Below, piece by piece: positions 32,877-52,036 of a stretch of 64,000 bases of DNA; the stretch's first letter is position 1, and each line of letters opens with the position of its first letter. This stretch comes from Burkholderiales bacterium (GTDB taxonomy: Bacteria; Pseudomonadota; Gammaproteobacteria; Burkholderiales; SG8-39), in assembly GCA_014860445.1 (NCBI GenBank), contig JACZJT010000025.1, positions 1-64,000 on the forward strand. Direction: 5' to 3'. The translations under genes were made by a program, and so were the position numbers. Below the pieces are notes generated by a model, which saw only the letters and a program-made list of their open reading frames with translations, ran no database searches and was not told the DNA's origin.

Positions 32877-32883
32877 CGTCCTG

Positions 32884-35451: not shown

Positions 35452-35508
35452 CGCAGCAAATGCACAGCCCGAATTCTTCATCAAGAATACTTTTCAAGTG
35501 AGATCGCT

Positions 35509-36621: not shown

Positions 36622-37805
36622 CCGATATGAACTTCAAAATACCTTTTAGTGGACGCGCCCACGCTTACACGGCAGAAGAACTTGAGACGATAGTCGAGAC
36701 GGCGAAAAGTGCTGCTCCGTTGACGCAAGGGCGGCATCGCAATGAGTTCGAGGCTGCATTCAAGGCTTATGCCGGAGTCGAGCATTGCTTCGCGGTCTGT
36801 AACGCCGCATCGGCGCTGGAGCTTACTGCACAGTTGTGTTGCTTCAAACCTGGCGATGAGGTCATTATCCCTTCACATACCTATACGGCCTCGGCCTATC
36901 CTTACTTGAAAAAGGGCGCAAAGATCGTGTGGGCCGATATCGACCCGGCTACGCGAGTTGTGACGGCCGATACCCTGCGCGCGTGCATTACCCCACGAAC
37001 CAGGGCAATTGTGGTCGTCCATCTCTATGGGTATGGCGCCGACATGCCGGCCATCATGGCGCTTGCGAAGGAAAACCAACTGCTCGTAGTCGAGGATGTG
37101 GCCCAGGCCTTGGGCGTCGAGATTGAAGGCCAAAAAGCAGGCAGCTTTGGTGACTTTGGCGTGTTTTCATTTCACTCGCACAAGAACGTCAGCACGCTTG
37201 GCGAGGGTGGCATGCTAACTGTGCGCGATCCCGCACGCGCAGCGATTGTGCCGATGCTGCGACACAACGGGCACGCCGATTATCCGGAACCACGCAAGGA
37301 CTACTGGCGGCCCGCGATGGGCAATGTCGATCTGCCCATGTTGGGTGAGGAAATCCTCATGCCCAATAATTACTGTTTAGGCGAAGTGGAATGCGCGTTG
37401 GGCGTCAAGCTTCTCCAGCGCATCGATGCCTCGAACGCCGAGAAGCGTGCGCGCGCGATACGCTGTATCGATGCCTTGGCGGCGCATCCCGAGCTGCAAT
37501 TCCATCGCGTCACGACCACGAGGCACAACTATCACCTCCTCGTCGCGCGAATCGCGAACAGCTGGCGTGATGGGTTTATCCGTCGGATGGCGCAAGAGCA
37601 TGGAGTGCAGTGCGTGGTGCAGTACTACCCTCTGAACCGTTACCCGTTCTACCAGAAACTCGGTTACGGGGTGGCCAACAGTCCGAATGTCGATGATTTT
37701 TTCGACAACATGGTGTCGTTCCCGTTCCAGCACAGCCTCACCGAGGGGGAACTGGATTACATGGTTGGCGCGGCCAGAACGGTATTGAAGAAGCTGGCTG
37801 TTTGA
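36618..37805 (+). CDS. DegT-family aminotransferase, second copy (KdnA-like role)
   Basis: A PLP-dependent sugar aminotransferase of 395 residues. Motifs: AVCNAASALELTAQLCCFKPGDEVIIPSHTY, VVEDVAQALGVE with the PLP Asp, and FSFHSHKNVSTLGEGGM with the Schiff-base Lys; all are intact. It follows the KdnB-like dehydrogenase with an overlapping GTG start (ATG at 36627 is an alternative), so it probably aminates the aldehyde or ketone that enzyme makes. By sequence it is not an obvious close relative of Shewanella KdnA, so the shared role is inferred from position. Confidence 0.85.
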   Translation: MTDMNFKIPFSGRAHAYTAEELETIVETAKSAAPLTQGRHRNEFEAAFKAYAGVEHCFAVCNAASALELTAQLCCFKPGDEVIIPSHTYTASAYPYLKKGAKIVWADIDPATRVVTADTLRACITPRTRAIVVVHLYGYGADMPAIMALAKENQLLVVEDVAQALGVEIEGQKAGSFGDFGVFSFHSHKNVSTLGEGGMLTVRDPARAAIVPMLRHNGHADYPEPRKDYWRPAMGNVDLPMLGEEILMPNNYCLGEVECALGVKLLQRIDASNAEKRARAIRCIDALAAHPELQFHRVTTTRHNYHLLVARIANSWRDGFIRRMAQEHGVQCVVQYYPLNRYPFYQKLGYGVANSPNVDDFFDNMVSFPFQHSLTEGELDYMVGAARTVLKKLAV

Positions 37806-39428
37806 GTGGAAGCATTGCTTATCGTCATCCCGGCCATCAAGAAGAGCGTTGCCTTTCCGGATGACCTGGTCAAGAAGCTGGCAGGAGTAACGCTAATTCA
37901 GCGTGCTATCGCTATCGCCACTGACGCGGTACCGAAATTGCAGGTTCTGGTGGTAACCGATTCAGCAGAGATCGACCTGATCTGCCGCCGCCAGGATGTG
38001 GCCACACATCTCGACCCGGCCCTGCAGTTACCCCGGCGGGCCATTTCGGCGCTTGACGTTGCGCCTTACCTTGAAGGCCATAAAGAACAGTGGGAGGACC
38101 TGCTGCTGCTTTCGCCCTATGTGCCGTTGCTAAGTGCGGCGACACTTAGATCGGCGTATGAATACTATTGTTCCGCCAATGCGAGGTTCCTGGTCCCGGT
38201 CATACGCCTTCATGCCAACCCATTTACGCCTTGGCCTGATACCCTGCGGGACCGGGCGCAGGCAGCGGGTCAGGTGTCGACCGTCGAATCCGCAGCCTTT
38301 TCGATCACCAGTCGTACTTTGCTCGAAGCCAAGGAAGAGGCCAAAGTTCAGGCGCTGGCCTTCCCGCTTGAAGACGAGCTGATTGAGATCTGCGATTATC
38401 AGGATTGGTGGCTATGCGAAAAATTGCTCAACCGCCGTCGCATTGTTTTTCGGGTCATTGGGCACAAGGCGGTGGGCATGGGGCACCTATACCGCTGCCT
38501 GGCTTTGGCCCACGAAATATCCGATCACGAGGTGTATTTCGTCTGCGATACGGAAAGCGTTGCCGCCGCAAACAAGTTGGCAGGATACGACTACTGGTTG
38601 GGCGCGTACGACCCTGGGGCCATCGAACAGGCCATCCTAGATCTTAAGCCCGATCTAGTCGTCAATGACATTTTGAATACCGACGCCAATTACGTTCACC
38701 GTTTGCGGGCAGCCGGCGTTCGTGTTGTCAATTTCGAAGACTTGGGTAGCGGGGCGGCCGAGGCCGATCTCACCATCAACGACCTCTACGATGAACCGCA
38801 ATTGTCTGGAGCGAGGATTCTGTGGGGACAGGGCTGGTTTATTCTGCGCGACGAATTCAGTGACGCCCTTCCCCAACCGTTTCAGGACAGGGTTGCGCGT
38901 TTGCTGATTACTTTCGGCGGCACCGACCCGAGTGATTTCACTCGCCGTGTATTACCTCTTATCGCGCCGTATTGTGCTGACCAGGAAATTGGCATTGATG
39001 TGGTGACGGGCGACGGCTACGGCCATGTTGAAGCGTTGGAGACTCTCATTGCCGGATTACCAGCAGAGATAACCTACACTCACGCCACCGGCGTCATCTC
39101 GCAAATCATGGAAACAGCGCAACTGGCAATTTGCTCTAACGGTCGGACTGTTTATGAACTGGCGCAAATGCATATCCCGGCCTTGGTGCTCTCACACCAC
39201 GCCCGCGAATTGTCTCACCGGTTTGCCTGCGAGCAAAACGGCTTTTCCCCGGTCGATATCCCGAACGGACCTGAGCATGATCCAAAGATCCTGCAGGTGC
39301 TTCATCGGCTCGTCGAAGATGTTGCCTATCGTCGAAAACTGTTCGATAGCATGCAACATCATAGCTTTTCCGGAAACAAACGCAAAGTCGTGGAACGGCT
39401 GCAGAGTTTGCTGAAAGAGGCGCGATGA
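37806..39428 (+). CDS. Fusion of a cytidylyltransferase-like domain and a PseG-like sugar hydrolase
   Basis: A 540-residue two-domain protein. Residues 1-205 resemble the NeuA/PseF CMP-sugar synthetase fold but with altered motifs: VIPAIKKSVAFPDDLVKKLAG where NeuA has an R-G-G-S-K loop, and LLLLSPYVPLLSAATLR where LQPTSP is expected. Residues 212-540 match PseG, the UDP-sugar hydrolase of pseudaminic acid synthesis (GT-B fold): GMGHLYRCLALAHE near 224, LITFGGTDPSDFT and CSNGRTVYELAQMHIPAL. The GTG start directly follows the previous stop. The fusion suggests coupling of UDP removal with activation; whether the N-terminal half is active is doubtful. Confidence 0.82.
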   Translation: MEALLIVIPAIKKSVAFPDDLVKKLAGVTLIQRAIAIATDAVPKLQVLVVTDSAEIDLICRRQDVATHLDPALQLPRRAISALDVAPYLEGHKEQWEDLLLLSPYVPLLSAATLRSAYEYYCSANARFLVPVIRLHANPFTPWPDTLRDRAQAAGQVSTVESAAFSITSRTLLEAKEEAKVQALAFPLEDELIEICDYQDWWLCEKLLNRRRIVFRVIGHKAVGMGHLYRCLALAHEISDHEVYFVCDTESVAAANKLAGYDYWLGAYDPGAIEQAILDLKPDLVVNDILNTDANYVHRLRAAGVRVVNFEDLGSGAAEADLTINDLYDEPQLSGARILWGQGWFILRDEFSDALPQPFQDRVARLLITFGGTDPSDFTRRVLPLIAPYCADQEIGIDVVTGDGYGHVEALETLIAGLPAEITYTHATGVISQIMETAQLAICSNGRTVYELAQMHIPALVLSHHARELSHRFACEQNGFSPVDIPNGPEHDPKILQVLHRLVEDVAYRRKLFDSMQHHSFSGNKRKVVERLQSLLKEAR

Positions 39429-40120
39429 AGGCGCCTGTTGTTGCAGTTATCCAGGCTCGCATGGGGTCATCCCGATTACCCAACAAGATGATGCTGTGGC
39501 TCCACGGTATGCCTGTTGTCGAATGGGTGTGGCGCCGGGTGGCGATGACAAAACAAATCGATCGCACGGTATTTGCGATTCCGGATACGCCGGCTGATCA
39601 GGTGCTGGCGGACTACCTCCTGCGTATCGGCGCGGCAGTCTTCAGAGGGAGCGAAAGCGATGTCCTGGGCCGTATGACTGAAGCAGCGCGCAGGCAAGGT
39701 ACACAGACCGTGATCCGGGTTTGTGCCGATAATCCGCTGATATGCGGATCGGAAATCGATCGCCTGATCGACTACTACCAGGAAGGCGATTATGACTACG
39801 CGTACAACCACATTCCGCGCGGCAATACCTATCCAGACGGCCTGGGTGCGGAGATTGCCTCTATGGACCTGTTTGAACTGATGTTTAGAGAAGCCGTTAC
39901 GCCTGACCAGAGGCAGCACGCCTTTAACTATGTGTGGGATCACCCAGAGCGATTCCGCATCGGTACCTGCGATCCGCTCGATGAATTCCTTGCGCATCCC
40001 GAACTGAAACTAGATCTCGATACGTCAGCCGACTACGCAGCCTTGCTCAAGCTTAATATTCACCCGGAAATGGGTGCGAGCGAGGTCGTCACCACCGCTT
40101 TGCAATGCTCACGGAGTTAA
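39425..40120 (+). CDS. SpsF-like cytidylyltransferase, second copy
   Basis: A 231-residue protein of the SpsF type: VVAVIQARMGSSRLPNKMMLWLHGMPVVEWVWRRV with the intact NTP-binding R-x-x-S-x-R-L-P loop, then FRGSESDVLGRM and RVCADNPLICGSEI. It could supply the CMP-transferring activity that the neighbouring fusion protein seems to have lost. The start overlaps the fusion gene stop (ATGA), and it lies directly before the second NeuB. Confidence 0.86.
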   Translation: MKAPVVAVIQARMGSSRLPNKMMLWLHGMPVVEWVWRRVAMTKQIDRTVFAIPDTPADQVLADYLLRIGAAVFRGSESDVLGRMTEAARRQGTQTVIRVCADNPLICGSEIDRLIDYYQEGDYDYAYNHIPRGNTYPDGLGAEIASMDLFELMFREAVTPDQRQHAFNYVWDHPERFRIGTCDPLDEFLAHPELKLDLDTSADYAALLKLNIHPEMGASEVVTTALQCSRS

Positions 40121-40121
40121 T

Positions 40122-41192
40122 ATGAACTTGCGCCAACTCATCGAAAGCCCTCTTACCGGCAAGCTTGATACTCAATCGAAACCGCGCCCTCATCTGATCG
40201 CCGAGGCTGGGGTCAACCACGAAGGAGATATGGATCTTGCGAAGCGCCTGATTGACGAAGCCAAAGAGGGTGGGGCCGATGCCATCAAGTTCCAGACCTA
40301 CAAGGCAGAATCCATTGCTTCGAAAGATTCGCCATCTTACTGGGATCTGAGCAAGGAGCCGACGGACAGCCAGTACCGGTTATTCAAAAAGTATGACAAG
40401 TTTTGGAAGTCGGAATTTGAGGTGCTCGCCCGTTATTGCGAGGATGCGGGTATCGAATTCATCAGCACACCATTTGACGTGGAGTCCGCCGCTTTCCTCA
40501 ACGACCTGATGGGGGTGTTCAAGATTTCATCGTCGGATCTCAACAACAAGCCCTTCATCGACATCCTGTGCAGTTACGGAAAACCAGTCATCCTCTCCAC
40601 TGGCGCCGCATGGATGTGGGAAGTTGAGCAGACCGTCGGCTGGATTCAACACCATGGCAACTCAGTCGCGCTGCTGCAGTGCGTGCTCAACTATCCGACA
40701 GCGGATGAAAACGCCAATTTGGCCGTAATCCCGGAACTGACGCGCAAGTTTCCCGATTTGATAATCGGCTATTCAGACCATACCCTGCCCAAGGATATGA
40801 AAACGCTCGAAGTGGCGACTCTGCTGGGGGCTCGAATCATCGAAAAGCACTTCACGCACGACAAGACACTGCCGGGCAATGATCACTACCACGCGATGGA
40901 CAAGGAGGACATCAAGCGATTCCATCGGCGACTGGATGCCTTGGGCCAACTGCTCGGAGACCGTCGCAAGCACCCGCTGGAGAGCGAGAATCTGTCGCGA
41001 GCCAACGCTCGGCGCAGCTTAGTGGCAGCGCGTGCCATCCCCGCAGGTAAGGCCGTTGAAGCGGCGGACATTACATGGAAGCGGCCAGGCCGCGGAATTG
41101 ATCCACGTGACTTCGATCGGCTGATTGGAAGCAAGGCACAGCAGGAAATCATCGAAGACACCGTATTGCAGTGGGGAATGTTTGGTGTCTAA
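40122..41192 (+). CDS. NeuB-family nonulosonic acid synthase, second copy
   Basis: A 356-residue NeuB homologue: LIAEAGVNHEGDMDLAKRLI, GGADAIKFQTYKAE, FISTPFDVESAAFL, FKISSSDLNNKPFIDIL, LSTGAAWMWE, IIGYSDHTLPKDM and IIEKHFTHDKTLPGNDHYHAMD, then a C-terminal SAF domain. It is nearer to standard sialic/legionaminic acid synthases than the first copy (NHEGD against NHDGD; longer loop KDSPSYWDLSKEPTDSQYRLF). The ATG at 40122 gives the normal N-terminus; an upstream in-frame start at 40074 would run within the SpsF gene. Confidence 0.92.
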   Translation: MNLRQLIESPLTGKLDTQSKPRPHLIAEAGVNHEGDMDLAKRLIDEAKEGGADAIKFQTYKAESIASKDSPSYWDLSKEPTDSQYRLFKKYDKFWKSEFEVLARYCEDAGIEFISTPFDVESAAFLNDLMGVFKISSSDLNNKPFIDILCSYGKPVILSTGAAWMWEVEQTVGWIQHHGNSVALLQCVLNYPTADENANLAVIPELTRKFPDLIIGYSDHTLPKDMKTLEVATLLGARIIEKHFTHDKTLPGNDHYHAMDKEDIKRFHRRLDALGQLLGDRRKHPLESENLSRANARRSLVAARAIPAGKAVEAADITWKRPGRGIDPRDFDRLIGSKAQQEIIEDTVLQWGMFGV

Positions 41193-41252: not shown

Positions 41253-43064
41253 ATGCTATTAGTCACTACCGCAGTTGAGGAGACTTGGGGAGACGGCGGT
41301 GAAGTCCTGTTCCTCGGCGAATGGTGCAAGCTTTATGACAGAAAACACATATGGGGGACTCTAAGACACGAGACTTTGCCTTATCACTGGGATGATCGAT
41401 TGAAGTTGAGAAGAGATTTCGAGCGCCTGCAGAGCTTTAATGATGAATTACTGGTTGATCTAACTGAAGCGCTCAACCGGTTGCATGGCGTTGATCATTC
41501 AATTCGGTACTGGCGACTCGTGCTTGGCTACTGGTTGAACTTATTCACCGCCGTCTTGTTCGATCGCTGGGAAATGATCCATCTGGCATTGGAAACGGGG
41601 CGGGCAAAAAGAGCGAATGGGCTGTTAATGTCGCCAGAGGATTTGGCGGCAAACGATTCGAACGGGTTTGTTGAGTCAATTCTGAGCGACTATTGGAATC
41701 AGTATATCTACCAAAGAATATTGCAGCAGCACGGTGGTGCCTTAAGCATAGATTATCTCTCAGGCGAGATGACTACGGGTTTGAACATGCGTGCCCGGAC
41801 TAAGCCTGCTATTCATCCCCGTCAGCAGCTGAAGCGCCTAGCACGAAATGCCTTGAACCGCCTCGCTCGCATCGCCGGCCGGGCAACGGATCCGCTTTTG
41901 ATCAATACTTATCTGTCAAATTGGGCGCAAGCCGAATTGCAGGTGGCGCTAGGATGCGTGCCGCAATTTCCGGCTGCCATCGACATACCTGAAATCAAAT
42001 ACAACGCTGGTATGCGGAAATGGGCGCTTTCTCGCATGGGAACTGCCGATAGTTTTGAAATTTTCGTGCGTTCGATGATCCCTGAGCAACTTCCAAGAGT
42101 ATTTGTTGAGGGTTTTGAAACCCTCAAGGCAAGTATTGCGGCCGCCGGGTGGCCTAGACGTCCGCGATTTATCTTTACCGCATGTAGTCATTACACCGAC
42201 GATGCTTTCAAAGTATGGGCCGGAGCTAAGGTCGATGCCGGTACGCCGTTTATTGCCGTCGAGCATGGGGGCTTCGGATCGAATGCCTTTAGCGGAGCAA
42301 TAAATTACCAACTGGAAGTATCAGACCGCTCCCTATCTTGGGGCTGGGAGGATCCTGGGCACCCTCAGGTCAAGCCGTTCGCCATAGTAAAGGCCATTGG
42401 TAAGCGTCAGAAATGGGACTCCACAGGCGACGCACTAATGGTTCAAGTCGCCATGCCGAGATATAGTTTTGATATACGCGCGATGGCGATATCTGGACAA
42501 ATGCTGGACTACTTTGAAGATCAATTTCGGTTTTACGAAGCGTTGCCCGAGGCGATCCAAAGCAAATTGCTTGTTCGCCTGGCTCAGCAAGACCTCGGAT
42601 GGTGTCAAAAGCGCCGTTGGCAAGATAGATTGCCCGATGTGCGACTAGATGACGGGGTAGTGCCTATGGCAACCCTTATCGAAAAGTCGCGGCTTTATAT
42701 CTCCACCTACAACGCAACTACATATCTGGAATCGCTCTCGCTTAATGTTCCGACAATCATGTTTTGGAACCCTAATCACTGGGAACTCCGTGACGAAGCG
42801 ATTCCGCATTTCAGTCGACTTAAGGAAGTCGGTATTTTTCACGAGACGCCTGAATCTGCCGCCGCCAAAGTCGCCGCAATCTGGGGCAATGTACCTGGGT
42901 GGTGGAGCCAGTTGGAGATACAAGAAGCTAGGGAATTGTTCTGCCATCATTTTGCGCGGCAGGTAGAAAATCCTATAGCAGTTCTGAAAGACATCCTGGA
43001 AGCGGTTGAGGGCAAGCGGTCCGCGCCCGGTCGATTGAGCAAGTTGCTTGAAATGATTTTGTGA
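41253..43064 (+). CDS. LIC12162-type putative surface carbohydrate transferase
   Basis: A 603-residue protein of the family named after Leptospira LIC12162, annotated as a putative transferase of O-antigen clusters. The N-terminus is typical: LVTTAVEETWGDGGEVLFLGEWCKLY, with WRLVLGYWLNLF about residue 88 and, late in the protein, AVEHGGFGSNAF near 330 and STYNATTYLESLSLNVPTIMFWN near 485, which looks like the nucleotide-sugar-binding end of a GT-B enzyme. It directly follows NeuB and could use the CMP-nonulosonate. No Shine-Dalgarno sequence is obvious before the ATG. Confidence 0.8.
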   Translation: MLLVTTAVEETWGDGGEVLFLGEWCKLYDRKHIWGTLRHETLPYHWDDRLKLRRDFERLQSFNDELLVDLTEALNRLHGVDHSIRYWRLVLGYWLNLFTAVLFDRWEMIHLALETGRAKRANGLLMSPEDLAANDSNGFVESILSDYWNQYIYQRILQQHGGALSIDYLSGEMTTGLNMRARTKPAIHPRQQLKRLARNALNRLARIAGRATDPLLINTYLSNWAQAELQVALGCVPQFPAAIDIPEIKYNAGMRKWALSRMGTADSFEIFVRSMIPEQLPRVFVEGFETLKASIAAAGWPRRPRFIFTACSHYTDDAFKVWAGAKVDAGTPFIAVEHGGFGSNAFSGAINYQLEVSDRSLSWGWEDPGHPQVKPFAIVKAIGKRQKWDSTGDALMVQVAMPRYSFDIRAMAISGQMLDYFEDQFRFYEALPEAIQSKLLVRLAQQDLGWCQKRRWQDRLPDVRLDDGVVPMATLIEKSRLYISTYNATTYLESLSLNVPTIMFWNPNHWELRDEAIPHFSRLKEVGIFHETPESAAAKVAAIWGNVPGWWSQLEIQEARELFCHHFARQVENPIAVLKDILEAVEGKRSAPGRLSKLLEMIL

Positions 43065-44037: not shown

Positions 44038-44810
44038 AAAATTACCCGACGAATCAGGAGCGAACGGCGGAGTATCTTGAGAAATTTGACCGAGAGAGAA
44101 CTCTAAAATATTTGATTGAATGCAACCGCCCAGTCATTTTTGATGTCGGGGCAAATGTTGGATCCACGTTAGATGAATTCAAATTATGGTGGCCTGACTC
44201 GGAGGTCCACTGTTTTGAACCTCAGCAGGAATGTTGGGAATCGCTTGAGCAGCGAGCCGGCAAGTACGCTCCGGCGGATGTTGTAATAAACAGATTTGCT
44301 GCAGGAAGTGCCCCCAACGATCAGGCTCCCTTTTATTCGCACGACATCAGCAGCGGAATATCGGGGTTTAACAGGATTAATCTGCAGAGCCGAGATTCGG
44401 TCCACCTGAATCGGTTGATAGAGTCGGACCCGCGGGGTTTGCCAGAATATGAGCAATCTCTGAACCACGAAAGAAGTGTGAAAATTGTTCGTCTTAACGA
44501 CTACCTAAATACATCGGGGATTCAGCGAGTACATCTTCTTAAGATAGATACACAAGGGTATGAACCTGAGGTGCTTGAGGGTTTCGGGGCAAGGTTAGCC
44601 GATGTGGATGTAGTCATTACCGAACTGATGTTTTATGACTACTACGAGCGCAGCTTATCGTTCTCAGATATTGAACGCTTCTTGCTGCCCGCGGGATTCC
44701 ATTTATACGACATTAGCCATATCGCGAAGAATCCCATGAATGGCCGAACTGACTGGGTCGATGTTATCTATGTTAATAATCGGATAAGAACCGGGGGGCG
44801 GCGTGCTTAA
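44034..44810 (+). CDS. FkbM family methyltransferase, second copy
   Basis: A 258-residue FkbM protein with IFDVGANVGSTLDEFKLWWP (motif I, near residue 37), VHCFEPQQECWESLEQ, HLLKIDTQGYEPEVLEGFG and VITELMFYDYY. It shares the fold but little direct sequence with the preceding gene, so this is not a recent duplication. It starts at TTG overlapping the previous stop (TTGA), and its end overlaps the aldolase gene by eight bases. Confidence 0.86.
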   Translation: MKNYPTNQERTAEYLEKFDRERTLKYLIECNRPVIFDVGANVGSTLDEFKLWWPDSEVHCFEPQQECWESLEQRAGKYAPADVVINRFAAGSAPNDQAPFYSHDISSGISGFNRINLQSRDSVHLNRLIESDPRGLPEYEQSLNHERSVKIVRLNDYLNTSGIQRVHLLKIDTQGYEPEVLEGFGARLADVDVVITELMFYDYYERSLSFSDIERFLLPAGFHLYDISHIAKNPMNGRTDWVDVIYVNNRIRTGGRRA

Positions 44811-45564
44811 GGAGAAATTGCGCAAAAATGAAATAGCGCTAGGGTCCTGGATAACGCTTGGTAATCCGGCAATAGCGGAAATCATGGCTAGGGCGGGTTT
44901 CGACTGGTTGGTGGTAGATTTGGAGCACAGCGTCATCGGCATCGATGTCGCCGGGGACTTGATACGCATCATCGATCTGTGCGGCGTTGCTCCACTGGTG
45001 CGGCTTACGTCGAACGACGCGAACCAGATCAAGCGTGTGATGGACGTCGGAGCCCATGGCATCGTCGTGCCTTCTGTAAATTCCCCGGCGGAGGCAGCGC
45101 GGGCGGTGGCGGCCACGCGCTATGCGCCCCGCGGGTCGCGGGGTGTCGGCTTGGGCCGGGCCCAAGGGTACGGTATCAGTTTCCAGGACTATCTTAAATG
45201 GCAGAGCGAAGGGCCGGTGGTGATTGTGATGATCGAGCATAAGGAGGCAATTGACCAATTGGAGGAGATTCTGACGGTCCCGGGCGTAGACGGCTTTCTC
45301 ATCGGACCCTATGACCTGTCTTGCTCATTGGGGATTCCGGGGCAGTTTGAAAAAGCCGAGTTCACTAGCGCGCTTGCGCGCATCCGCGAGACCGGCAAGC
45401 GCCTCGGCTGCCCGGCAGGACTGCACATTGTCGAACCCGACACGCAACGGCTCGAACAGACCATTCGCGAAGGCTACACTTTCATTGCCTACGGCGTTGA
45501 TATGCGCATGCTCGATGTCGGCGCGCGGCAAGGGGTCTCAAAACTGAAAGAGATACAACGATGA
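44803..45564 (+). CDS. HpcH/HpaI family aldolase
   Basis: A class II, metal-dependent pyruvate aldolase of 253 residues: GSWITLGNPAIAEIMARAGFDWLVVDLEHS, the GAHGIVVPSVNSPAEA loop, GVGLGRAQGYG, VMIEHKEAIDQLEEIL with the metal-binding Glu, and GPYDLSCSLGIPGQF with the metal-binding Asp. Known members cleave or form 2-keto-3-deoxy acids from pyruvate and an aldehyde. Immediately upstream of a KdsB-like gene, it is a strong candidate for building a 3-deoxy-2-ulosonic acid without PEP. Starts at GTG; the stop overlaps the KdsB-like gene (ATGA). Confidence 0.86.
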   Translation: MLKEKLRKNEIALGSWITLGNPAIAEIMARAGFDWLVVDLEHSVIGIDVAGDLIRIIDLCGVAPLVRLTSNDANQIKRVMDVGAHGIVVPSVNSPAEAARAVAATRYAPRGSRGVGLGRAQGYGISFQDYLKWQSEGPVVIVMIEHKEAIDQLEEILTVPGVDGFLIGPYDLSCSLGIPGQFEKAEFTSALARIRETGKRLGCPAGLHIVEPDTQRLEQTIREGYTFIAYGVDMRMLDVGARQGVSKLKEIQR

Positions 45565-46331
45565 AAGCAATCGGCATCATTCCCGCCCGCCTGGGCGCAA
45601 CCCGCTACCCAAACAAGCCCATGGCCACCATTCATGGCATGCCCATGGTGGGACATTGCTACCACCGTACCCGTCTGGCCCCCGGCCTCGCTGCGGCTTA
45701 TGTAGCGACCTGCGATGAAGAAATTGTCCGGTATGTGCGCAGCATCGGTGGATCGGCGGTCATGACGGCGACGAGCCATACCAGGGCCACGACGCGCACT
45801 GCCGAAGCGATGGAGCACATCGAGGCCGCAACGGGTGAGCGTGCAGATGTGGTGGTCATGGTGCAGGGGGATGAACCGCTGATCCTGCCTGAGACGATAG
45901 CCGAGACTCTTGTCCACTTCCGGGATCCGGCGGTAGAGATTGTCAACATCATGTCGCGCCTGCGTACGTATGAGCAGTTTGTCGACAAGAACAATGTCAA
46001 GGTGGTCGTGAGCCAGGATAACAATGCACTCTATTTTTCCCGCGAACCGATCCCCTCGCCTTGGAGGGGGGTGGAGGGGGTGCCGATGTATATGCAGACC
46101 GGCATCATCGCGTTTCGCCGTGACGTGCTCCTTCGCTTTAACCGTATGGCGGAGACCCGGCTTGAGCAGATCGAATCGGTGGACATGAATCGGGTGCTCG
46201 AATCCGGCGGTCGGATCCGCATGATTCTGACCGAAGCCGTCACCATCGGTGTCGATACGCCACAAGAGCTCAAAGATGCGGAGGAACTGATGAAGAACGA
46301 TCCAGTCCTGTCACAATATCTGACGCTATGA
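45561..46331 (+). CDS. KdsB-like cytidylyltransferase, divergent subfamily
   Basis: A 256-residue member of the CMP-Kdo synthetase family: IGIIPARLGATRYPNKPMATIHGMPMVGH, VVMVQGDEPLILPETI with the metal-binding Asp, YFSREPIPSPWRG and GVDTPQELKDAEEL with the second Asp. The substrate-binding region that reads S-G-T-D-R-x-A-E in ordinary KdsB is RATTRTAEAM here, so the conserved Asp is replaced by Thr. The enzyme therefore likely activates something other than standard Kdo. It is separate from the housekeeping kdsB expected elsewhere, and sits in an operon with the aldolase. Confidence 0.83.
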   Translation: MKAIGIIPARLGATRYPNKPMATIHGMPMVGHCYHRTRLAPGLAAAYVATCDEEIVRYVRSIGGSAVMTATSHTRATTRTAEAMEHIEAATGERADVVVMVQGDEPLILPETIAETLVHFRDPAVEIVNIMSRLRTYEQFVDKNNVKVVVSQDNNALYFSREPIPSPWRGVEGVPMYMQTGIIAFRRDVLLRFNRMAETRLEQIESVDMNRVLESGGRIRMILTEAVTIGVDTPQELKDAEELMKNDPVLSQYLTL

Positions 46332-46757
46332 AAGACCATGAAATTCGACCGGAAGCGCTACTGAATCGATACATCGAATTGAGCAGCCAAGACGACGAAC
46401 GCCATTTTAGAGATATAGGCCTGAGGCTTTCATCCCAGCCATGGCCTAGATTCGCCGTGAGAAGATATTGCGCCAAAAGATCAACGTTCTAGCAGGCCTT
46501 TGCGGGCGGCATGTTGGCTGGTTTCTAGAGATTTTTTAACGGGTCAGCTCGGTAGATAGCATCGTGACTACGCCGGGGCAGTTGGATCGATCTTATGCGC
46601 AAAACCATACTGCGCTACACGATGGGCAGCGCTTTCTCCACAACCGTATGGCAGAACACAGCAAGCCCTTGACATCGTACCGATTTCCGACCGAGCGGTG
46701 GCTGAGTTCCTATGTCTGGATCATTGGTCGAAAAACATTAGACAAAGAAATCGCACA
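46328..46757 (+). pseudogene. Relic coding region between the KdsB-like and Gfo/Idh genes
   Basis: Two coding-like pieces remain. The first, 46328-46492, would encode 54 residues starting MKDHEIRPEALLNRYIELSS, which resembles the extreme N-terminus of SAM-dependent methyltransferases found in similar clusters. The second is open from 46560 through 46757 in the frame of the following gene and reads AALSPQPYGRTQQALDIV and EFLCLDHWSKNIRQ; I do not recognise it. Stops separate the two. The simplest view is that one gene, or the ends of two, were lost by deletion. Confidence 0.5.
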
Positions 46758-47804
46758 ATGACTGAACAAAGAGTCGGAATCGCCGGATTCGGTGTGGTTG
46801 GCAAGCGTCGCAAAGAATGTTTGGATCGTCATCCGCTTCTGCGTGTGGTCGCAGTGTGTGACCAGACCTTTGGCGGAGAGGGTGTGCTCCATGACGGTAT
46901 TCGCCATTACAACGATTACCGTCGTTTGCTGACCGAAAAATTGGATATTCTGATTGTTTGCATGACCAACGACATTGCAGCGGAGGTGACCATTGCCGGC
47001 CTGGAATCTGGCTTGCATGTCTTTTGCGAAAAGCCACCAGGCCGTAGTGTGGAAGACATAGAGCGGGTTATAGGCCATGAGCGCAATCATCCAGAACTCA
47101 AGCTGATGTACGGCTTTAACCATCGTTATCATGACTCGGTTAAGGACGCACTGCGTATTCTTAATTCCGGGGAACTCGGCCGTGTAATCAATATGCGCGG
47201 CGTCTATGGCAAGGCGAAACTGATTACCTTTAATCAACCGGACTGGCGGACCAAGCGGGCGATCGCAGGGGGGGGGGTATTGCTCGATCAAGGTATTCAC
47301 ATGGTCGATCTCATGCGGCTGTTCGGTGGTGAATTCACCGAGGTGCGTAGTTTCATTTCCAATAGTCACTGGGGCTACGATGTGGAAGACAATGCGTATG
47401 CGTTGATGCGCAATGCCGATGGTGTAGTGGGTATGCTCAATTCTTCGGCCACTCAATGGCGACATCGCTTTAATTTGGACATCAATCTTGAGCGGGGCAG
47501 CCTCATTTTGGGTGGGCTATTGACGGGAACCAAGAGTTACGGCGCGGAGACGCTAACTGTCGTGCAAGCCGACCCGGATAACGATCGTGGCGATCCGAAA
47601 GAGCAAGTTACTCGCTACAACCGGGACCCTTCGTGGGACGAAGAAATCGCCGCTTTCGCGGATAGCGTTTTGCACGATAAGCCGGTGCAGAGCGGTACCT
47701 CCGACGATGCGTTGCGTACGATGCAACTTGTTTTTAAGATTTACTACGCAGATGCTGCGTGGCGTTCAACCTATAACATCCCCAATCCGGAGTCCGATGA
47801 ATAA
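46758..47804 (+). CDS. Gfo/Idh/MocA family oxidoreductase
   Basis: A 348-residue NAD(P)-dependent sugar dehydrogenase: GIAGFGVVGKRRKECLD (Rossmann motif), VFCEKPPGRSVEDIE, with the E-K-P motif carrying the catalytic Lys, and GVLLDQGIHMVDLMRLFGG. The three glycine codons 171-173 and the first base of 174 form a run of ten G residues (47268-47277), which is prone to slippage. Members of this family oxidise or reduce sugars and sugar nucleotides. The ATG at 46758 is the start; open frame upstream belongs to a relic. Overlaps the next gene by eight bases. Confidence 0.88.
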   Translation: MTEQRVGIAGFGVVGKRRKECLDRHPLLRVVAVCDQTFGGEGVLHDGIRHYNDYRRLLTEKLDILIVCMTNDIAAEVTIAGLESGLHVFCEKPPGRSVEDIERVIGHERNHPELKLMYGFNHRYHDSVKDALRILNSGELGRVINMRGVYGKAKLITFNQPDWRTKRAIAGGGVLLDQGIHMVDLMRLFGGEFTEVRSFISNSHWGYDVEDNAYALMRNADGVVGMLNSSATQWRHRFNLDINLERGSLILGGLLTGTKSYGAETLTVVQADPDNDRGDPKEQVTRYNRDPSWDEEIAAFADSVLHDKPVQSGTSDDALRTMQLVFKIYYADAAWRSTYNIPNPESDE

Positions 47805-48399
47805 TATTGACCGCATTTTTACACCCGACCCAGCTGCCTTCGCCACAGCCTATATCAAGTATCTGCAATCAGTCATGCTGCATGTCGATGCGGCAGAGAT
47901 CGGCCGCTTCATTGAAACGCTGCTCGATGCGCGCCATCGGGGTGCCACGGTATTTTTCATCGGTAACGGAGGCAGTGCCGCTACGGCTAGCCATTTTGCC
48001 AATGACTTGGCATATGGCACCAATGATTACAAACAGCCGTTTCGCGTCCTCAGCCTGACCGATAATGTGGCCGTCCTAACGGCATTGGGGAATGATTTTG
48101 GCTATGAGGAAATATTTGTCAGGCAACTGCGCGTGCTAAGCAAACAAGGAGATGTGCTGGTCGCCATTTCGGCTTCTGGCAATTCACCGAACTTGATCAA
48201 GACCATGGAGCATGCGAAATCAGTCGGGATCAAGACCGTGGCAATCACCGCCTTCGATGGTGGCAAGATGAAGGCGATGGCTGACGAGGGGATTCATGTA
48301 CCTACCGAGCCCAAGGAATACGGCCCGGCCGAGGATGTCCATATGATGTTGGATCACCTTGTGGGCGCGTATTTGATGCGAATTGTCAAACGGGCCTGA
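47797..48399 (+). CDS. SIS-domain sugar phosphate isomerase (GmhA-like)
   Basis: A 200-residue protein of the phosphosugar isomerase fold: VFFIGNGGSAATASHFANDLAYG and VLVAISASGNSPNLIKTMEHAKSVG are the phosphate-binding loops, and ITAFDGGKMKAMADEGIHVPT ends the fold. It is nearest to GmhA-type (sedoheptulose 7-phosphate isomerase) and KdsD-type proteins but lacks the usual acidic residue after S-A-A. It may make a phosphosugar that is then dephosphorylated by the next gene product and condensed by the aldolase. Confidence 0.82.
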   Translation: MNNIDRIFTPDPAAFATAYIKYLQSVMLHVDAAEIGRFIETLLDARHRGATVFFIGNGGSAATASHFANDLAYGTNDYKQPFRVLSLTDNVAVLTALGNDFGYEEIFVRQLRVLSKQGDVLVAISASGNSPNLIKTMEHAKSVGIKTVAITAFDGGKMKAMADEGIHVPTEPKEYGPAEDVHMMLDHLVGAYLMRIVKRA

Positions 48400-49156
48400 A
48401 TTGATCGAACTTCTCGATCTATGCAAATCGCTCGCAACCCAAGCGGGGTTGCGGTTGCTCGAGGACGCGAGCCCCGATGATAGGAGCTATGCTCATTCTA
48501 GTGAATTGCCTAAAGAGATCAAGGCTATTGCCGACGGTGTCCTGGAAGAGCACATCCTGCGTGCTCTTGTCCCTACCGGACTGTCGGTTCTAAGTGAGGA
48601 ATCCGGCTATATATCTGGCCAAGAAAATTCGAAATTGCTCTTTATCGTCGATCCACTCGACGGCACGTTTAATTTTGTTAAGGGGCTGGGACCAAGCGCT
48701 GTTTCCATCGCCTTATGGCAAGATCGAACGCCGGTATTTGGTGTAATTTTCAATCTTTCGAACCGTCAGCTCGTCTGGGGTGGCGCTGGGCTGGGTTCTT
48801 ACTCGGATGGTATCCGTATATCGGTTTCGGCGACTAGCGATCGTTCCAAAGCCTCAATCTGCACCGGGTTTCCTGTGCGGTTTGATCCAACGGGTGACAA
48901 CGCAATGCAAAACTTCTGGCGCATGGTCACACCTTTCGCCAAAGTCAGAATGCTTGGCTCCGCAGCAATATCGTTGTTGCATGTAGCAAACGGTTCCGCT
49001 GATGTCTATTCAGAGCAAGACATTATGCTTTGGGATGTAGCGGCGGGCCTTGCCATAGTAGAGGGGGCAGGCGGGCGCGTCTATTATGCTTCCGGGTTAG
49101 TCAACGAACCGTTAGATGTTTATGCAACTAATGGGATTATTGGTGGGCCGGTTTGA
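48383..49156 (+). CDS. Inositol monophosphatase family sugar phosphatase
   Basis: A protein of about 251-257 residues with the metal-dependent phosphatase motifs: LSEESGY (first metal-binding Glu), IVDPLDGTFNFVKGLG (Asp-Pro-Leu-Asp-Gly core) and IMLWDVAAGLAIVEGAGG (C-terminal Asp). It hydrolyses phosphate from a sugar or inositol. Start codons are uncertain: TTG at 48383 or TTG at 48401, both overlapping or touching the isomerase gene. The neighbouring isomerase suggests a sugar phosphate as substrate. Confidence 0.82.
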   Translation: MSNGPELIELLDLCKSLATQAGLRLLEDASPDDRSYAHSSELPKEIKAIADGVLEEHILRALVPTGLSVLSEESGYISGQENSKLLFIVDPLDGTFNFVKGLGPSAVSIALWQDRTPVFGVIFNLSNRQLVWGGAGLGSYSDGIRISVSATSDRSKASICTGFPVRFDPTGDNAMQNFWRMVTPFAKVRMLGSAAISLLHVANGSADVYSEQDIMLWDVAAGLAIVEGAGGRVYYASGLVNEPLDVYATNGIIGGPV

Positions 49157-49164
49157 GAATATCT

Positions 49165-50115
49165 ATGAACGTGAAAGATAAAGTGGCTGTTTGTTCTCGT
49201 TCATTTTCAGGCAACTCGATCTTGCGTGCCGAATTGCTCGCGCGGTATCAGCATGTTACTTTTAACGATGCAGGCATCCAGTTAAAGGGCGATAGCTTGG
49301 TCGAATTTTTGAGAGGGCATAAGAAGGCAATAACTGCGCTTGAAATTCTAGACGAATCCGTTATTGCTCGTCTGCCTGAGCTTGAGGTTGTCGGAAAATA
49401 TGGCGTTGGCCTAGACATGATTGACATGAAGGCAATGCGCGCTCATGGGAAACGTATAGGCTGGACTGGTGGGGTAAACCGCCGCTCGGTTTCCGAACTA
49501 GTTGTCTCGTTTGCTATTGCGATGCTTCGCCATGTGCCGTTAGCGAATCGTGAAGTTCTATCCGGTACATGGCGTCAGCATGTTGGAGGGTATTTGACTG
49601 GTCGCACCGTCGGTATTGTCGGTTGTGGGCACGTAGGCAAGGATCTGGTGACTCTGTTACGCGCGTTCGATTGCCCAATCTTGGCTAACGATATCCGCGA
49701 TTATTCTGACTTCTATGCGGTGAATGGGATCAAGGCGGTTGCGTTGGACGAGCTGCTGATGCAATCCGATATTGTTTCCCTGCACGTGCCACTCGATGAA
49801 AGTACGAGCAACCTACTGAATGCAAAACGACTTGCTTTGCTGAAACCTGCTGCGGTACTAATCAATGCAGCTAGAGGTGGGATTGTTGACGAGATGGCGC
49901 TAAAAGAAATGCTGCAGACCAAGCGCTTGGCAGCGGCGGCATTCGATGTGTTTTCGGTAGAGCCTCCGCGGGACATGGAACTGCTGTCGCTACCTAATTT
50001 CCTCGTCACGCCTCACATCGGTGGAAGTGCTCACGAGGCAATACTTGCAATGGGGCGAGCCGCAATAATCGGATTAGATGAGAATCAAGTTCCGTCTATC
50101 GATTTTGCGAACTGA
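49165..50115 (+). CDS. D-isomer-specific 2-hydroxyacid dehydrogenase
   Basis: An NAD-dependent dehydrogenase of about 316 residues resembling D-3-phosphoglycerate dehydrogenase without its regulatory domain: VVGKYGVGLDMIDMKAM, TVGIVGCGHVGKDLV (Rossmann motif), LHVPLDESTSNLLN, LINAARGGIVDEMAL and VTPHIGGSA with the catalytic Arg, Glu and His of the family. It might produce or use a 2-keto acid that feeds the aldolase, or modify the ulosonic acid itself. ATG at 49165 preferred over TTG at 49153. Confidence 0.84.
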   Translation: MNVKDKVAVCSRSFSGNSILRAELLARYQHVTFNDAGIQLKGDSLVEFLRGHKKAITALEILDESVIARLPELEVVGKYGVGLDMIDMKAMRAHGKRIGWTGGVNRRSVSELVVSFAIAMLRHVPLANREVLSGTWRQHVGGYLTGRTVGIVGCGHVGKDLVTLLRAFDCPILANDIRDYSDFYAVNGIKAVALDELLMQSDIVSLHVPLDESTSNLLNAKRLALLKPAAVLINAARGGIVDEMALKEMLQTKRLAAAAFDVFSVEPPRDMELLSLPNFLVTPHIGGSAHEAILAMGRAAIIGLDENQVPSIDFAN

Positions 50116-50158
50116 AGTTTAGGCATTTGTGGATACGGGTGAGTGCGGAGGTGTTGCT

Positions 50159-52036
50159 GTGCGTACCTTGCTTGTATGGGATGCGCCAGGTTCGCCTCCC
50201 CCCGGCGATTGGACTGTCATGCTTTGGCGTGGCTTTGATGAAAGCGCCTTCTCGGATGTCATTTCGATCCCAAAGCTGGTGGAAGCGGGCGCCGAGGAAC
50301 TAAGGGCGCGTTACTTGGCGTGGATTTACGAGCTGGGTGAGATGCCCATCAGCGGTAAGCGCGTGGTCGATCATTTAGAGTTTCGAATTGGACTGAGCTA
50401 TTGGTGGATGACGCTATTTGCAGAGAAGTGCAACTTCGACAAATCGCCCCAGATCGACGATGCCATTCGTCTGATGGCCTTTGAGGACTGGGCAACCGGC
50501 CGTTCTCTTGGCCGCGTCGTACTGGACAGTTGTAATGCTCCTCTTGCTGAGTGCATGCGTTCCTGGTGCGCAGGTTCAGGGATTGGGTTCGAACGGCAGA
50601 TCACGGTGGCGGAGAAGGAGCGCCGGTCGTCGCTTAAACGTTTGTATCAGTCGATGCCCCATCCTGTGCAGGCCTTGGCATGGCTGGTTGGTCATCTGGT
50701 GCGATTTTGGCCGTTGAGGAATTTGGGTGTTCGGGAATGGCGCCAAACAAAGGGGCGGGTTACCTTTATTTCTTACCTGTTCAATTTGGTTCCCGGTTCC
50801 GCAAAGGAAGGGAGATTCGAAAGTCGCTATTGGGCGCATTTGCCGGATGAACTACAACGGGAGGGTTGCAAGACCAATTGGCTCCATTTGTACGTGGAGG
50901 ATGCTTTATTGCACACGCCTGAGAAGGCGGCCGATGTCATTCGCCAATTCAACACAACTGGCCGAGATGGGCAGACCCATGTAACGCTGGACGCGTTTTT
51001 GAGCGCCAAGGTTGTTTTCAGGACGCTGCGCGACTGGTTCAGGCTTGCTTGGATAGGCGGGCGTTTGCGGCGAGCGATTGCCTCGCCACATGCGGCGGCG
51101 CTTAATCTCTGGCCCTTGTTCCAGGATGACTGGCAGCGGACGATGTCTGGCCAGACCGCATTAAGCGGTCTGCTCAATTACAATCTATTCGAGTCGGCAC
51201 TGAAGGCCTTGCCAAAACAAAGGGTGGGTGTGTATTTGCAGGAAAATCAGGGGTGGGAGTTCGCGCTCATTCATGCATGGAGGACAGCGGGGCATGGCCG
51301 GTTAATCGGGTCGCCGCATTCGACCGTTCGGTACTGGGACCTGCGTTACTTTTTTGACCCGCGCAGTTACTCGCAGAAGGGCCGAAACAACATGCTGTTG
51401 CCAGATCAAGTCGCGATGAACGGCCCGGCTGCTCGTGATGCCTACGTTACGAGCGGGTATCCGGTGGGCGATTTGGTGGACGTCGAAGCATTGCGCTACC
51501 TCTATCTTGTCGATATCAAAGCCGATGCGGATATCGTTTTGGCGCGACCGACGGGGAGCCCTTTACGCGTGCTGGTACTTGGAGAATATTTGTTGAGTAG
51601 TACGGAGAAGCAAATGCGCTTGCTGGAGAAGGCGGCCGGGTTTTTGCCGAAAGATATGAAGATTACCGTCAAACCTCATCCCAACTGCCCGGTACAAGTT
51701 GCGGATTACCCCGGTCTCAGGCTGGAAGTGACAATGAGCCCCATATCGACATTGGTGCAGGCGTGCGACGTCGCCTACACAGGCAGTATAACATCGGCGG
51801 CTGTTGATGCCTTTTGTGCGGGTGTGCCAGTCGTTTCGGTGCTAGATCCAGATATTCTCAATCTGAGCCCGCTGCGAGGCCAGGCGGGCGTCTTGTTTGC
51901 CAGTACACCAGAAGAACTGGCACATGCAATGATTGCCTCAGTCTCCGGCCGCCGTGCGACAAAGGGACAAGACTTCTTCACACTTGACCCCAACCTGCCT
52001 CGTTGGCGGAAACTGCTGCTGGAGTCGATCGAATGA
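50159..52036 (+). CDS. LIC13510-type (TIGR04326-like) surface carbohydrate biosynthesis protein
   Basis: A protein of about 625 residues belonging to the large, poorly characterised family of O-antigen cluster proteins with the N-terminal pattern RTLLVWDAPGSPPPGDWTVMLWRGF. The second half looks like a GT-B or capsule-transferase fold: VKPHPNCPVQV near 510 and AYTGSITSAAVDAFCAGVPVVSVLDP near 545. It probably transfers a nucleotide-activated ulosonic acid. The GTG at 50159 is preceded by GGAGG at ideal spacing; a GTG at 50129 would give ten more residues but has no ribosome binding site. Confidence 0.8.
   Translation: MRTLLVWDAPGSPPPGDWTVMLWRGFDESAFSDVISIPKLVEAGAEELRARYLAWIYELGEMPISGKRVVDHLEFRIGLSYWWMTLFAEKCNFDKSPQIDDAIRLMAFEDWATGRSLGRVVLDSCNAPLAECMRSWCAGSGIGFERQITVAEKERRSSLKRLYQSMPHPVQALAWLVGHLVRFWPLRNLGVREWRQTKGRVTFISYLFNLVPGSAKEGRFESRYWAHLPDELQREGCKTNWLHLYVEDALLHTPEKAADVIRQFNTTGRDGQTHVTLDAFLSAKVVFRTLRDWFRLAWIGGRLRRAIASPHAAALNLWPLFQDDWQRTMSGQTALSGLLNYNLFESALKALPKQRVGVYLQENQGWEFALIHAWRTAGHGRLIGSPHSTVRYWDLRYFFDPRSYSQKGRNNMLLPDQVAMNGPAARDAYVTSGYPVGDLVDVEALRYLYLVDIKADADIVLARPTGSPLRVLVLGEYLLSSTEKQMRLLEKAAGFLPKDMKITVKPHPNCPVQVADYPGLRLEVTMSPISTLVQACDVAYTGSITSAAVDAFCAGVPVVSVLDPDILNLSPLRGQAGVLFASTPEELAHAMIASVSGRRATKGQDFFTLDPNLPRWRKLLLESIE

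What the first reader, a model, noticed from the sequence alone, without database searches (positions are those of the whole stretch)
44803..50115. Possible aldolase-based pathway to a CMP-activated 3-deoxy-2-ulosonic acid
Six adjacent genes encode, in order, an HpcH/HpaI pyruvate aldolase, a KdsB-like cytidylyltransferase, a Gfo/Idh oxidoreductase, a SIS sugar-phosphate isomerase, an inositol-phosphatase-like phosphatase and a 2-hydroxyacid dehydrogenase. Known routes to Kdo and nonulosonic acids use PEP-dependent synthases (KdsA, NeuB) and KdsC. Here a pyruvate aldolase takes that place directly beside the activating enzyme, with an isomerase and phosphatase to prepare the aldehyde. Motifs in all six proteins appear intact. 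I know of no characterised pathway with this enzyme set; the chemistry is inferred from family roles.
Basis: partly seen in the sequence, partly recalled or inferred. Interest (0 to 1): 0.85.

Follow-up and report, generated by a model that had tools for sequence, protein, structure and literature searches.

The report
Aldolase route to CMP-activated acidic sugar
A conserved set of sugar genes, found in bacteria of many phyla, probably builds an acidic surface sugar with a pyruvate aldolase and activates it with CTP, a route unlike the known ones to Kdo and sialic acids, though no enzyme has been tested and the sugar itself is unknown.

Summary
The six genes are real and at the stated place: HpcH/HpaI aldolase, KdsB-like cytidylyltransferase, Gfo/Idh oxidoreductase, GmhA-like SIS isomerase, IMPase-like phosphatase, D-2-hydroxyacid dehydrogenase. 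The genome has ordinary KdsA and KdsB elsewhere. Of 80 loci picked by KdsB-like similarity alone, 76 carry the aldolase; of 20 ordinary KdsB loci of module-bearing genomes, none do. KdsB-like proteins keep the CTP/Mg residues but differ from ordinary KdsB at near-fixed positions, including His and Tyr of a published substrate-binding motif. In 6 of 41 genomes the module copy is the only KdsB found, and none of the 6 has KdsA over cut-off. An aldolase-first search found the full six-gene set in two more genomes, at 28-54% identity. In most relatives the Gfo/SIS/phosphatase part is replaced by an SDR and a HAD phosphatase. Best reading: a PEP-independent, pyruvate-aldolase route to a CMP-activated 2-ulosonic acid other than Kdo. 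The aldehyde, chain length and redox steps are inferred. Ten paper searches listed none describing it.

The parts
44803..45564 (+). HpcH/HpaI-type pyruvate aldolase, module-specific subfamily
   Evidence: PF03328; E41 H42 R67 E145 D171 shared with other family members, F127 Y170 H208 module-specific; in 76 of 80 KdsB-like loci
45561..46331 (+). KdsB-like cytidylyltransferase, candidate CMP-ulosonate synthetase that is not an ordinary CMP-Kdo synthetase
   Evidence: PF02348, PRK13368 subfamily; CTP/Mg residues kept, sugar-site motif changed
46328..46740 (+). decayed remains of a methyltransferase that sits between the KdsB-like and Gfo/Idh genes in several relatives
   Evidence: tblastn pieces of the N-terminal, middle and C-terminal parts, best E 1e-11, with stops and deletions
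46758..47804 (+). Gfo/Idh/MocA oxidoreductase
   Evidence: PF01408 and PF22725; 45-79% identical to 12 relatives that I chose from type A loci
47797..48399 (+). SIS-domain sugar-phosphate isomerase, nearest to phosphoheptose isomerase GmhA
   Evidence: PF13580; gmhA model 124 of 209 bits; best PDB matches are phosphoheptose isomerases
48383..49156 (+). inositol-monophosphatase-family phosphatase
   Evidence: PF00459 149 bits
49165..50115 (+). D-2-hydroxyacid dehydrogenase of the SerA/GhrB group
   Evidence: PF02826 177 bits; in 46 of 80 loci, 35 of 38 outside Desulfovibrionaceae
50129..52036 (+). TIGR04326 surface-carbohydrate protein, candidate transferase for the product
   Evidence: 549 bits, cut-off 250; family found in 10 of 80 loci; no Pfam family, no significant PDB relative; fold not obtained

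Best explanation
The genes encode a PEP-independent route to a CMP-activated 2-ulosonic acid other than Kdo for a surface polysaccharide. Inferred order: the SIS enzyme turns a ketose phosphate into an aldose phosphate; the IMPase-like enzyme removes the phosphate; the HpcH/HpaI aldolase adds pyruvate (or a pyruvate analogue) to the free aldose, giving a 2-ulosonic acid; the KdsB-like enzyme joins it to CMP; a transferase, perhaps the adjacent TIGR04326 protein, attaches it. The Gfo/Idh and 2-hydroxyacid dehydrogenase do redox steps whose place is unknown. Shown by computation: the families, conserved clustering, changed sugar-site motif of the KdsB-like enzyme, and its occurrence where KdsA was not found. 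Inferred: every chemical step, the aldehyde, the chain length.
For: Aldolase in 76 of 80 KdsB-like loci, within 2 kb in 72 of the 76; 0 of 20 ordinary KdsB loci. Aldolase-first, in 398 genomes of the phylum: of 5 non-own matches at 49% identity or more, 3 have KdsB-like within about 1.5 kb and all 5 in wider reads; of the 22 other matches outside the window module, 1 has it within about 1.5 kb. KdsB-like proteins keep P8, R10, R15, K19, R79, G103, D104 and D232 in 89 of 89, but have Q for H, D for E and M for Q in 89 of 89 and I for Y in 86 of 89, where 21 of 21 ordinary KdsB have H, E, Q and Y. H and Y lie in the motif RHIGVYAYR called substrate-binding in PMC7717453 (passages). KdsA is over cut-off in 33 of 41 module genomes, and all 33 have a second KdsB outside the module; in 6 the module copy is the only KdsB at E 1e-30, and none of these 6 has KdsA over cut-off (Fisher p 6e-6). 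In one of the 6, the Desulfovibrio piger assembly, no NeuB was found either. The aldolase shares its catalytic residues with the rest of the family.
Against: No activity or product is known. The HpcH/HpaI enzymes whose roles are named in PMC7610986 are catabolic (passages). The accessory enzymes are swapped among relatives, so the six need not be one pathway; 31 of 64 SDR/HAD-type loci, all Desulfovibrionaceae, have no 2-hydroxyacid dehydrogenase. Module dehydrogenases do not form one clade against the genome's other members. Co-divergence of aldolase and KdsB-like is weak (rho 0.28, 3 of 2000 permutations as high; with ordinary KdsB 0.17, 293 of 2000). Absence of KdsA or NeuB rests on drafts and MAGs; G371 and G406 have a second KdsB but no KdsA over cut-off. 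Five of the six genomes with only the module KdsB do have NeuB, in L040 within the same locus, so there the KdsB-like enzyme could serve a NeuB product.
Confidence: 0.65

Rival explanations
1. The aldolase and KdsB-like enzyme do make a CMP-ulosonic acid, but Gfo/Idh, SIS, phosphatase and 2-hydroxyacid dehydrogenase make a different sugar of the same polysaccharide.
For: The accessory set is replaceable (SDR and HAD phosphatase in most relatives), and the locus holds other sugar pathways: the window also has two NeuB genes.
Against: Gfo and SDR/HAD sets are almost mutually exclusive around the same pair (both in 2 of 80; neither in 2, on contigs of 3.4 and 4.4 kb), as alternatives would be. 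The Gfo set sits with KdsB-like proteins on at least three separate branches of the tree and recurs with changed order in L147-L149.
Confidence: 0.22
2. The 2-hydroxyacid dehydrogenase makes hydroxypyruvate, which the aldolase uses as donor, so the product is a 3-hydroxylated ulosonic acid of the Ko type and not a 3-deoxy one.
For: The dehydrogenase is present in 35 of 38 loci outside Desulfovibrionaceae and is closest to phosphoglycerate dehydrogenase and glyoxylate reductase. In a screen of 571 class II aldolases, 19 of the HpcH/HpaI family accepted hydroxypyruvate (PMC7610986, passages). A solved hydroxyketoacid aldolase is among the nearest PDB relatives (6r62).
Against: 31 of 42 Desulfovibrionaceae loci (30 of them with the aldolase) have no such dehydrogenase in the stretch read. 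No residue test of donor choice was made.
Confidence: 0.15
3. The KdsB-like gene is simply a second CMP-Kdo synthetase for polysaccharide Kdo, as KpsU is, and the aldolase is an unrelated neighbour.
For: It belongs to the KdsB family, and the genome has KdsA.
Against: 1gq9 (KpsU, identity recalled) keeps the H, Y, E and Q in the alignment printed, whereas 89 of 89 KdsB-like proteins have changed H, E and Q. The aldolase is present in 76 of 80 loci. Genomes where KdsA was not found over cut-off have the module.
Confidence: 0.06
4. The aldolase acts in the cleaving direction, in recycling or breakdown of a sugar acid.
For: The family roles named in PMC7610986 (passages) are catabolic.
Against: Conserved setting among polysaccharide genes with a CTP-consuming partner. 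In a quick tree the 24 comparison aldolases lie apart from the module ones at weak support (78), except one row that was in a wrong reading frame.
Confidence: 0.05

Closest known systems
Kdo pathway (KdsD, KdsA, KdsC, KdsB)
   Same: An isomerase, a C3 addition to an aldose, a phosphatase, then CMP activation by a KdsB-family enzyme (pathway recalled).
   Different: C-C bond assigned to a metal-dependent pyruvate-aldolase family, not PEP-dependent KdsA; SIS is GmhA-like; IMPase-type phosphatase, not KdsC; KdsB sugar-site motif changed.
Nonulosonic acid pathways (NeuB/LegI/PseI with NeuA-type synthetases)
   Same: CMP-activated ulosonic acid in a polysaccharide locus.
   Different: Aldolase and KdsB-family synthetase in place of NeuB and NeuA; NeuB (150 bits or more) is in only 12 of 80 loci.
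HpcH/HpaI, GarL and RhmA (YfaU) aldolases
   Same: Same family; catalytic and metal residues kept (roles recalled).
   Different: Below every equivalog cut-off listed; module-specific F127, Y170, H208; setting is polysaccharide synthesis.
In vitro aldolase plus CMP-sialate synthetase cascades
   Same: Pyruvate aldolase coupled to a CMP-sugar synthetase (PMC7729866, passages).
   Different: That is a preparative method with sialic acid enzymes, not a conserved gene module.

Membership tests
CMP-Kdo synthetase KdsB | passes the curated kdsB equivalog model TIGR00466 | tested here: not met
   147.7 of 155.2 bits for the window protein; some module relatives pass just above the cut-off, the highest seen being 173.8
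CMP-Kdo synthetase KdsB | CTP and Mg residues | tested here: met
   P8 R10 R15 K19 D104 D232 kept in 89 of 89; roles from PMC3149649 sections 6 and 7
CMP-Kdo synthetase KdsB | substrate-binding motif of the RHIGVYAYR type | tested here: not met
   H is Q in 89 of 89, Y is I, M or F in 89 of 89 KdsB-like proteins; 21 of 21 ordinary ones have H and Y
CMP-Kdo synthetase KdsB | activity on Kdo | not testable with these tools
   needs enzyme assay
HpcH/HpaI aldolase family (PF03328) | family profile and metal/catalytic residues | tested here: met
   131 bits; E41 H42 R67 E145 D171 (role assignment recalled)
HpaI, GarL or RhmA as characterised enzymes | curated equivalog cut-offs | tested here: not met
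   178 of 369, 164 of 407, 144 of 441 bits
Phosphoheptose isomerase GmhA | curated equivalog cut-off | tested here: not met
   123.8 of 209.5 bits
Nonulosonic acid pathway | NeuB-type synthase as part of the unit | tested here: not met
   NeuB in 12 of 80 loci; none found in the Desulfovibrio piger assembly that has the module, though found in 5 of 6 such genomes tested

The most novel reading that the evidence does not exclude
This is a third natural way to make CMP-activated ulosonic acids, independent of PEP, present in at least 15 named phyla including monoderm lineages (recalled) where no Kdo pathway was found, and its products are sugars not yet described: for example 3-hydroxylated acids from hydroxypyruvate, or ten-carbon acids if the isomerase works on heptose phosphate as its nearest relatives do.
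Probability: 0.3. Interest if true: 0.9.

Novelty: new variant of a known kind. Interest (0 to 1): 0.74.

Why it matters
Kdo, sialic, legionaminic and pseudaminic acids are all built by PEP-dependent synthases (recalled). A widespread pyruvate-aldolase route would mean that surveys based on KdsA and NeuB miss a class of acidic surface sugars, and that module proteins now named 3-deoxy-manno-octulosonate cytidylyltransferase are probably misnamed: the window protein and all four module proteins I scanned pass models of that name, PRK13368 and PRK05450.1-5. The Desulfovibrionaceae carry a compact version, so their surface chemistry becomes directly testable.

Tried and rejected
Ordinary Kdo synthetase: rejected as unlikely. 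Mobile origin: no KdsB-like match in plasmids at E 1e-40, four phage matches at 31-37% identity, none in viral contigs with a single-protein query, which finds close relatives only, no DNA match of the aldolase-KdsB stretch in E. coli genomes. Kdo8N pathway (the Fe-ADH and DegT genes upstream resemble a KdnB/KdnA pair, recalled): not pursued; no NCBIfam equivalog cut-off was reached by either, and of ten papers listed none was opened. Literature: ten searches. In the titles and abstract starts listed I saw none that describes this gene set. Several lists were capped (20 of 21, 12 of 62, 25 of 48 and 15 of 373), and most subscription journals are not held. Passages were read in PMC12409901, PMC7610986, PMC7717453, PMC7729866 and PMC3354558, and sections 6 and 7 of PMC3149649. 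WaaA as a Kdo marker: uninformative (3 of 13 genomes). Fold of the TIGR04326 protein: every request met a full queue, so no structure was obtained. Comparing divergence of aldolase and KdsB-like gave only a weak signal.

Data faults: some rows were translated by a longest-frame rule and at least two came out in a wrong frame (L114 among the ordinary KdsB rows, own_L007 among the aldolases; both have branch length 10 in the trees). The KdsB position counts were redone with the true frame and only those are used. The aldolase counts (24 comparison rows, one of them wrong) and the trees were not redone. Rows dropped: two KdsB-like rows at 150-250 bits (second copies in L047 and L148), and five aldolase rows at 300 bits or less (L022, L149, L151, L152, L153) before (listed).
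Full report
What is there. Six genes lie head to tail at 44803-50115 inside a polysaccharide locus. NCBIfam puts none of them over an equivalog cut-off: the aldolase reaches 178 of the 368.8 bits required for HpaI, the isomerase 124 of 209 for GmhA, the KdsB-like protein 148 of 155 for KdsB. The genome (G000, window = contig C49:1-64000) has an ordinary KdsA on contig C41 (399 bits, over cut-off) and an ordinary KdsB on C56 (306 bits), so the window copy is an extra. It also has five other PF03328 proteins.

The gap. The stretch between the KdsB-like and Gfo/Idh genes holds decayed pieces of a methyltransferase (46328-46740) that stands after the KdsB-like gene in L025, L026, L030 and L031 among others. 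The window operon thus looks like a seven-gene arrangement that has lost one gene.

Co-occurrence, KdsB-first. A profile of three KdsB-like proteins (the window's and those of G323 and G338, found) was used to scan the 84,980-species collection; 432 relatives were found and the best 80 kept. Family models built from these loci were run over all reading frames. At 150 bits or more, 76 of the 80 loci have the aldolase, 46 the 2-hydroxyacid dehydrogenase, 16 the Gfo/Idh protein, 12 the SIS protein, 8 the IMPase, 62 an SDR and 61 a HAD phosphatase. The four without aldolase are L023, L029, L042 and L097; in the last three the contig begins within 1.3 kb of the KdsB-like gene. Aldolase and KdsB-like frames are within 2 kb in 72 of 76. 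The 80 loci fall in 15 named phyla plus one unranked record, but 42 are Desulfovibrionaceae; outside these, aldolase is in 36 of 38 and the dehydrogenase in 35 of 38.

Control. Of the 35 module genomes with a second KdsB, I took 20 and read up to about 10 kb on each side of that gene, less where contigs ended (5.8 to 19.7 kb in all). By the same models at E 1e-8, none of 20 has the aldolase, Gfo, SIS, IMPase, SDR or HAD; one has a 2-hydroxyacid dehydrogenase.

Co-occurrence, aldolase-first. In 398 genomes of the same phylum, 27 have an aldolase match at E 1e-40 or better, 28 matches in all including two in the window genome. Of the five non-own matches at 49% identity or more, three (L119, L122, L123) have a KdsB-like gene within about 1.5 kb, and wider reads show modules at all five. 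The other three are new: L147 and L149 carry all six families and L148 all but the IMPase, with aldolase, KdsB-like, Gfo and SIS at 41-56% identity to the window, IMPase 36-41% and dehydrogenase 28-32%; in L147 and L148 the aldolase is on the opposite strand. Of the 22 other matches outside the window module, one (L127, 35%) has a KdsB-like gene within about 1.5 kb. Four of the 22 were read wider: L124 has SDR, HAD and dehydrogenase but no KdsB-like gene in 10 kb, L125 and L126 have nothing, L127 has the KdsB-like gene. The remaining 18 were seen only to about 1.5 kb.

Two module types. Type A, as in the window: aldolase, KdsB-like, Gfo, with SIS, IMPase and dehydrogenase (all present in L020, L022, L024, L026, L031 and L079 of the 80, loosely so in L020 where the SIS gene is 8 kb away). 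In L021, L025, L027, L028 and L030 an AroB-like protein is found and no IMPase; the one of L025 passes TIGR04425, AroB-related putative sugar phosphate phospholyase (469 bits, cut-off 400). Type B: aldolase, KdsB-like, SDR and HAD phosphatase, often with the dehydrogenase; a compact form without it holds in 31 of 42 Desulfovibrionaceae. Gfo and SDR/HAD occur together in 2 of 80 and both are missing in 2 of 80, on contigs of 3.4 and 4.4 kb. I read this as two ways of preparing the acceptor for one common core.

The KdsB-like enzyme. Against 21 ordinary KdsB proteins (20 plus the window genome's own), 89 KdsB-like ones keep P8, R10, R15, K19, R79, G103, D104 and D232 without exception, and differ at near-fixed positions (ordinary to KdsB-like, window numbering): H to Q179, E to D208 and Q to M209 (each 21 of 21 against 89 of 89), Y to I183 (86 of 89), D to C51 (88), N to M100 (85), T to N129 (86; ordinary 20 of 21), L to V207 (84) and G to C or A76 (89). 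The 89 include the window itself and near-copies. PMC3149649 (sections 6 and 7) assigns the kept residues, R79 and G103 by their Aquifex counterparts, to CTP and Mg binding and the C-terminal domain to Kdo binding. PMC7717453 (passages) calls RHIGVYAYR and FSR substrate-binding motifs, in a docking and alignment study; FSR is kept here at S160 and R161. 1gq9, which I recall as the capsule enzyme KpsU, keeps H, Y, E and Q in the alignment. So the nucleotide half is intact and the sugar half is altered.

Independence from Kdo. In 41 module genomes, KdsA is over cut-off in 33, and all 33 have a second KdsB outside the module locus. In six (L040 Dehalococcoidia, L066 Syntrophomonas, L079 Geothermocultor, L091 D. 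piger, L056, L074) the module copy is the only KdsB at E 1e-30, and KdsA is not over cut-off; L066 and L079 show only matches of 133 bits or less against 314. In D. piger NeuB is not found either; the other five have NeuB, in L040 inside the same locus. WaaA (PF04413) was found in 3 of 13 genomes, missing also in some with a second KdsB, so that test is uninformative. Two genomes, G371 and G406, have a second KdsB but no KdsA over cut-off; drafts may be incomplete. A D. desulfuricans LPS has been reported to contain Kdo (PMC3354558, passages), which fits the presence of ordinary KdsB besides the module in part of the group.

The aldolase. 82 module aldolases share E41, H42, R67, E145 and D171 (over 95%) with 24 others (over 90%) and have F127, Y170 and H208 in all 82, where most of the 24 differ; at H208 23 of 24 have a gap. 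PMC7610986 (passages) reports that HpcH/HpaI enzymes take glycolaldehyde, glyceraldehyde, lactaldehyde and erythrose as acceptors, and that 19 of 571 class II aldolases screened accept hydroxypyruvate. Thus the chemistry asked of it is within the family's reach.

Trees. KdsB-like and ordinary KdsB separate with full support in a quick tree of 80 rows, with one divergent second copy (from L148) on the ordinary side; type A sets occur on at least three separate KdsB-like branches. Module aldolases lie apart from the 24 others at weak support (78), but for one wrong-frame row. Dehydrogenases of the modules do not form one clade against the genome's other members. Aldolase and KdsB-like identities correlate weakly over 20 rows.

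Reading. Most likely a free aldose is made from a ketose phosphate, condensed with pyruvate or an analogue, and activated with CTP. The acceptor cannot be named: the isomerase is nearest to phosphoheptose isomerases but far below their cut-off. The next gene, 50129-52036, is a TIGR04326 surface-carbohydrate protein whose family is also found in 10 of 80 loci, and is my candidate transferase; its fold could not be obtained.

Noticed in passing
46328-46740: Decayed methyltransferase remains between the KdsB-like and Gfo/Idh genes; intact homologues stand after the KdsB-like gene in several relatives.
   Followed up: yes
29034-41192: Two further ulosonic-type gene groups, each with a NeuB (33746-34825 and about 40122-41192) and a cytidylyltransferase-like gene (30904-31674 and 39425-40120); the second also has Fe-ADH, DegT aminotransferase and a PseG-like protein with a long N-terminal extension that weakly matches cytidylyltransferases.
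   Followed up: partly
41253-43064 and 50129-52036: Large proteins of families TIGR04331 and TIGR04326, whose names carry LIC tags (Leptospira, recalled), with no Pfam domain; possible transferases for CMP-activated sugars.
   Followed up: partly
L025:14837-15919 and L021, L027, L028, L030: AroB-like protein (TIGR04425 in L025) present and IMPase absent in five type A modules; its reaction is unknown.
   Followed up: partly
L091 (Desulfovibrio piger), L056, L074: No KdsA over cut-off and no second KdsB found in these Gram-negative sulfate reducers; whether their LPS lacks Kdo is worth asking.
   Followed up: partly
G408 contig C22 (genome of L068): Two KdsA and two KdsB genes outside the module, about 19 kb apart on one contig; duplication or assembly fault.
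   Followed up: no
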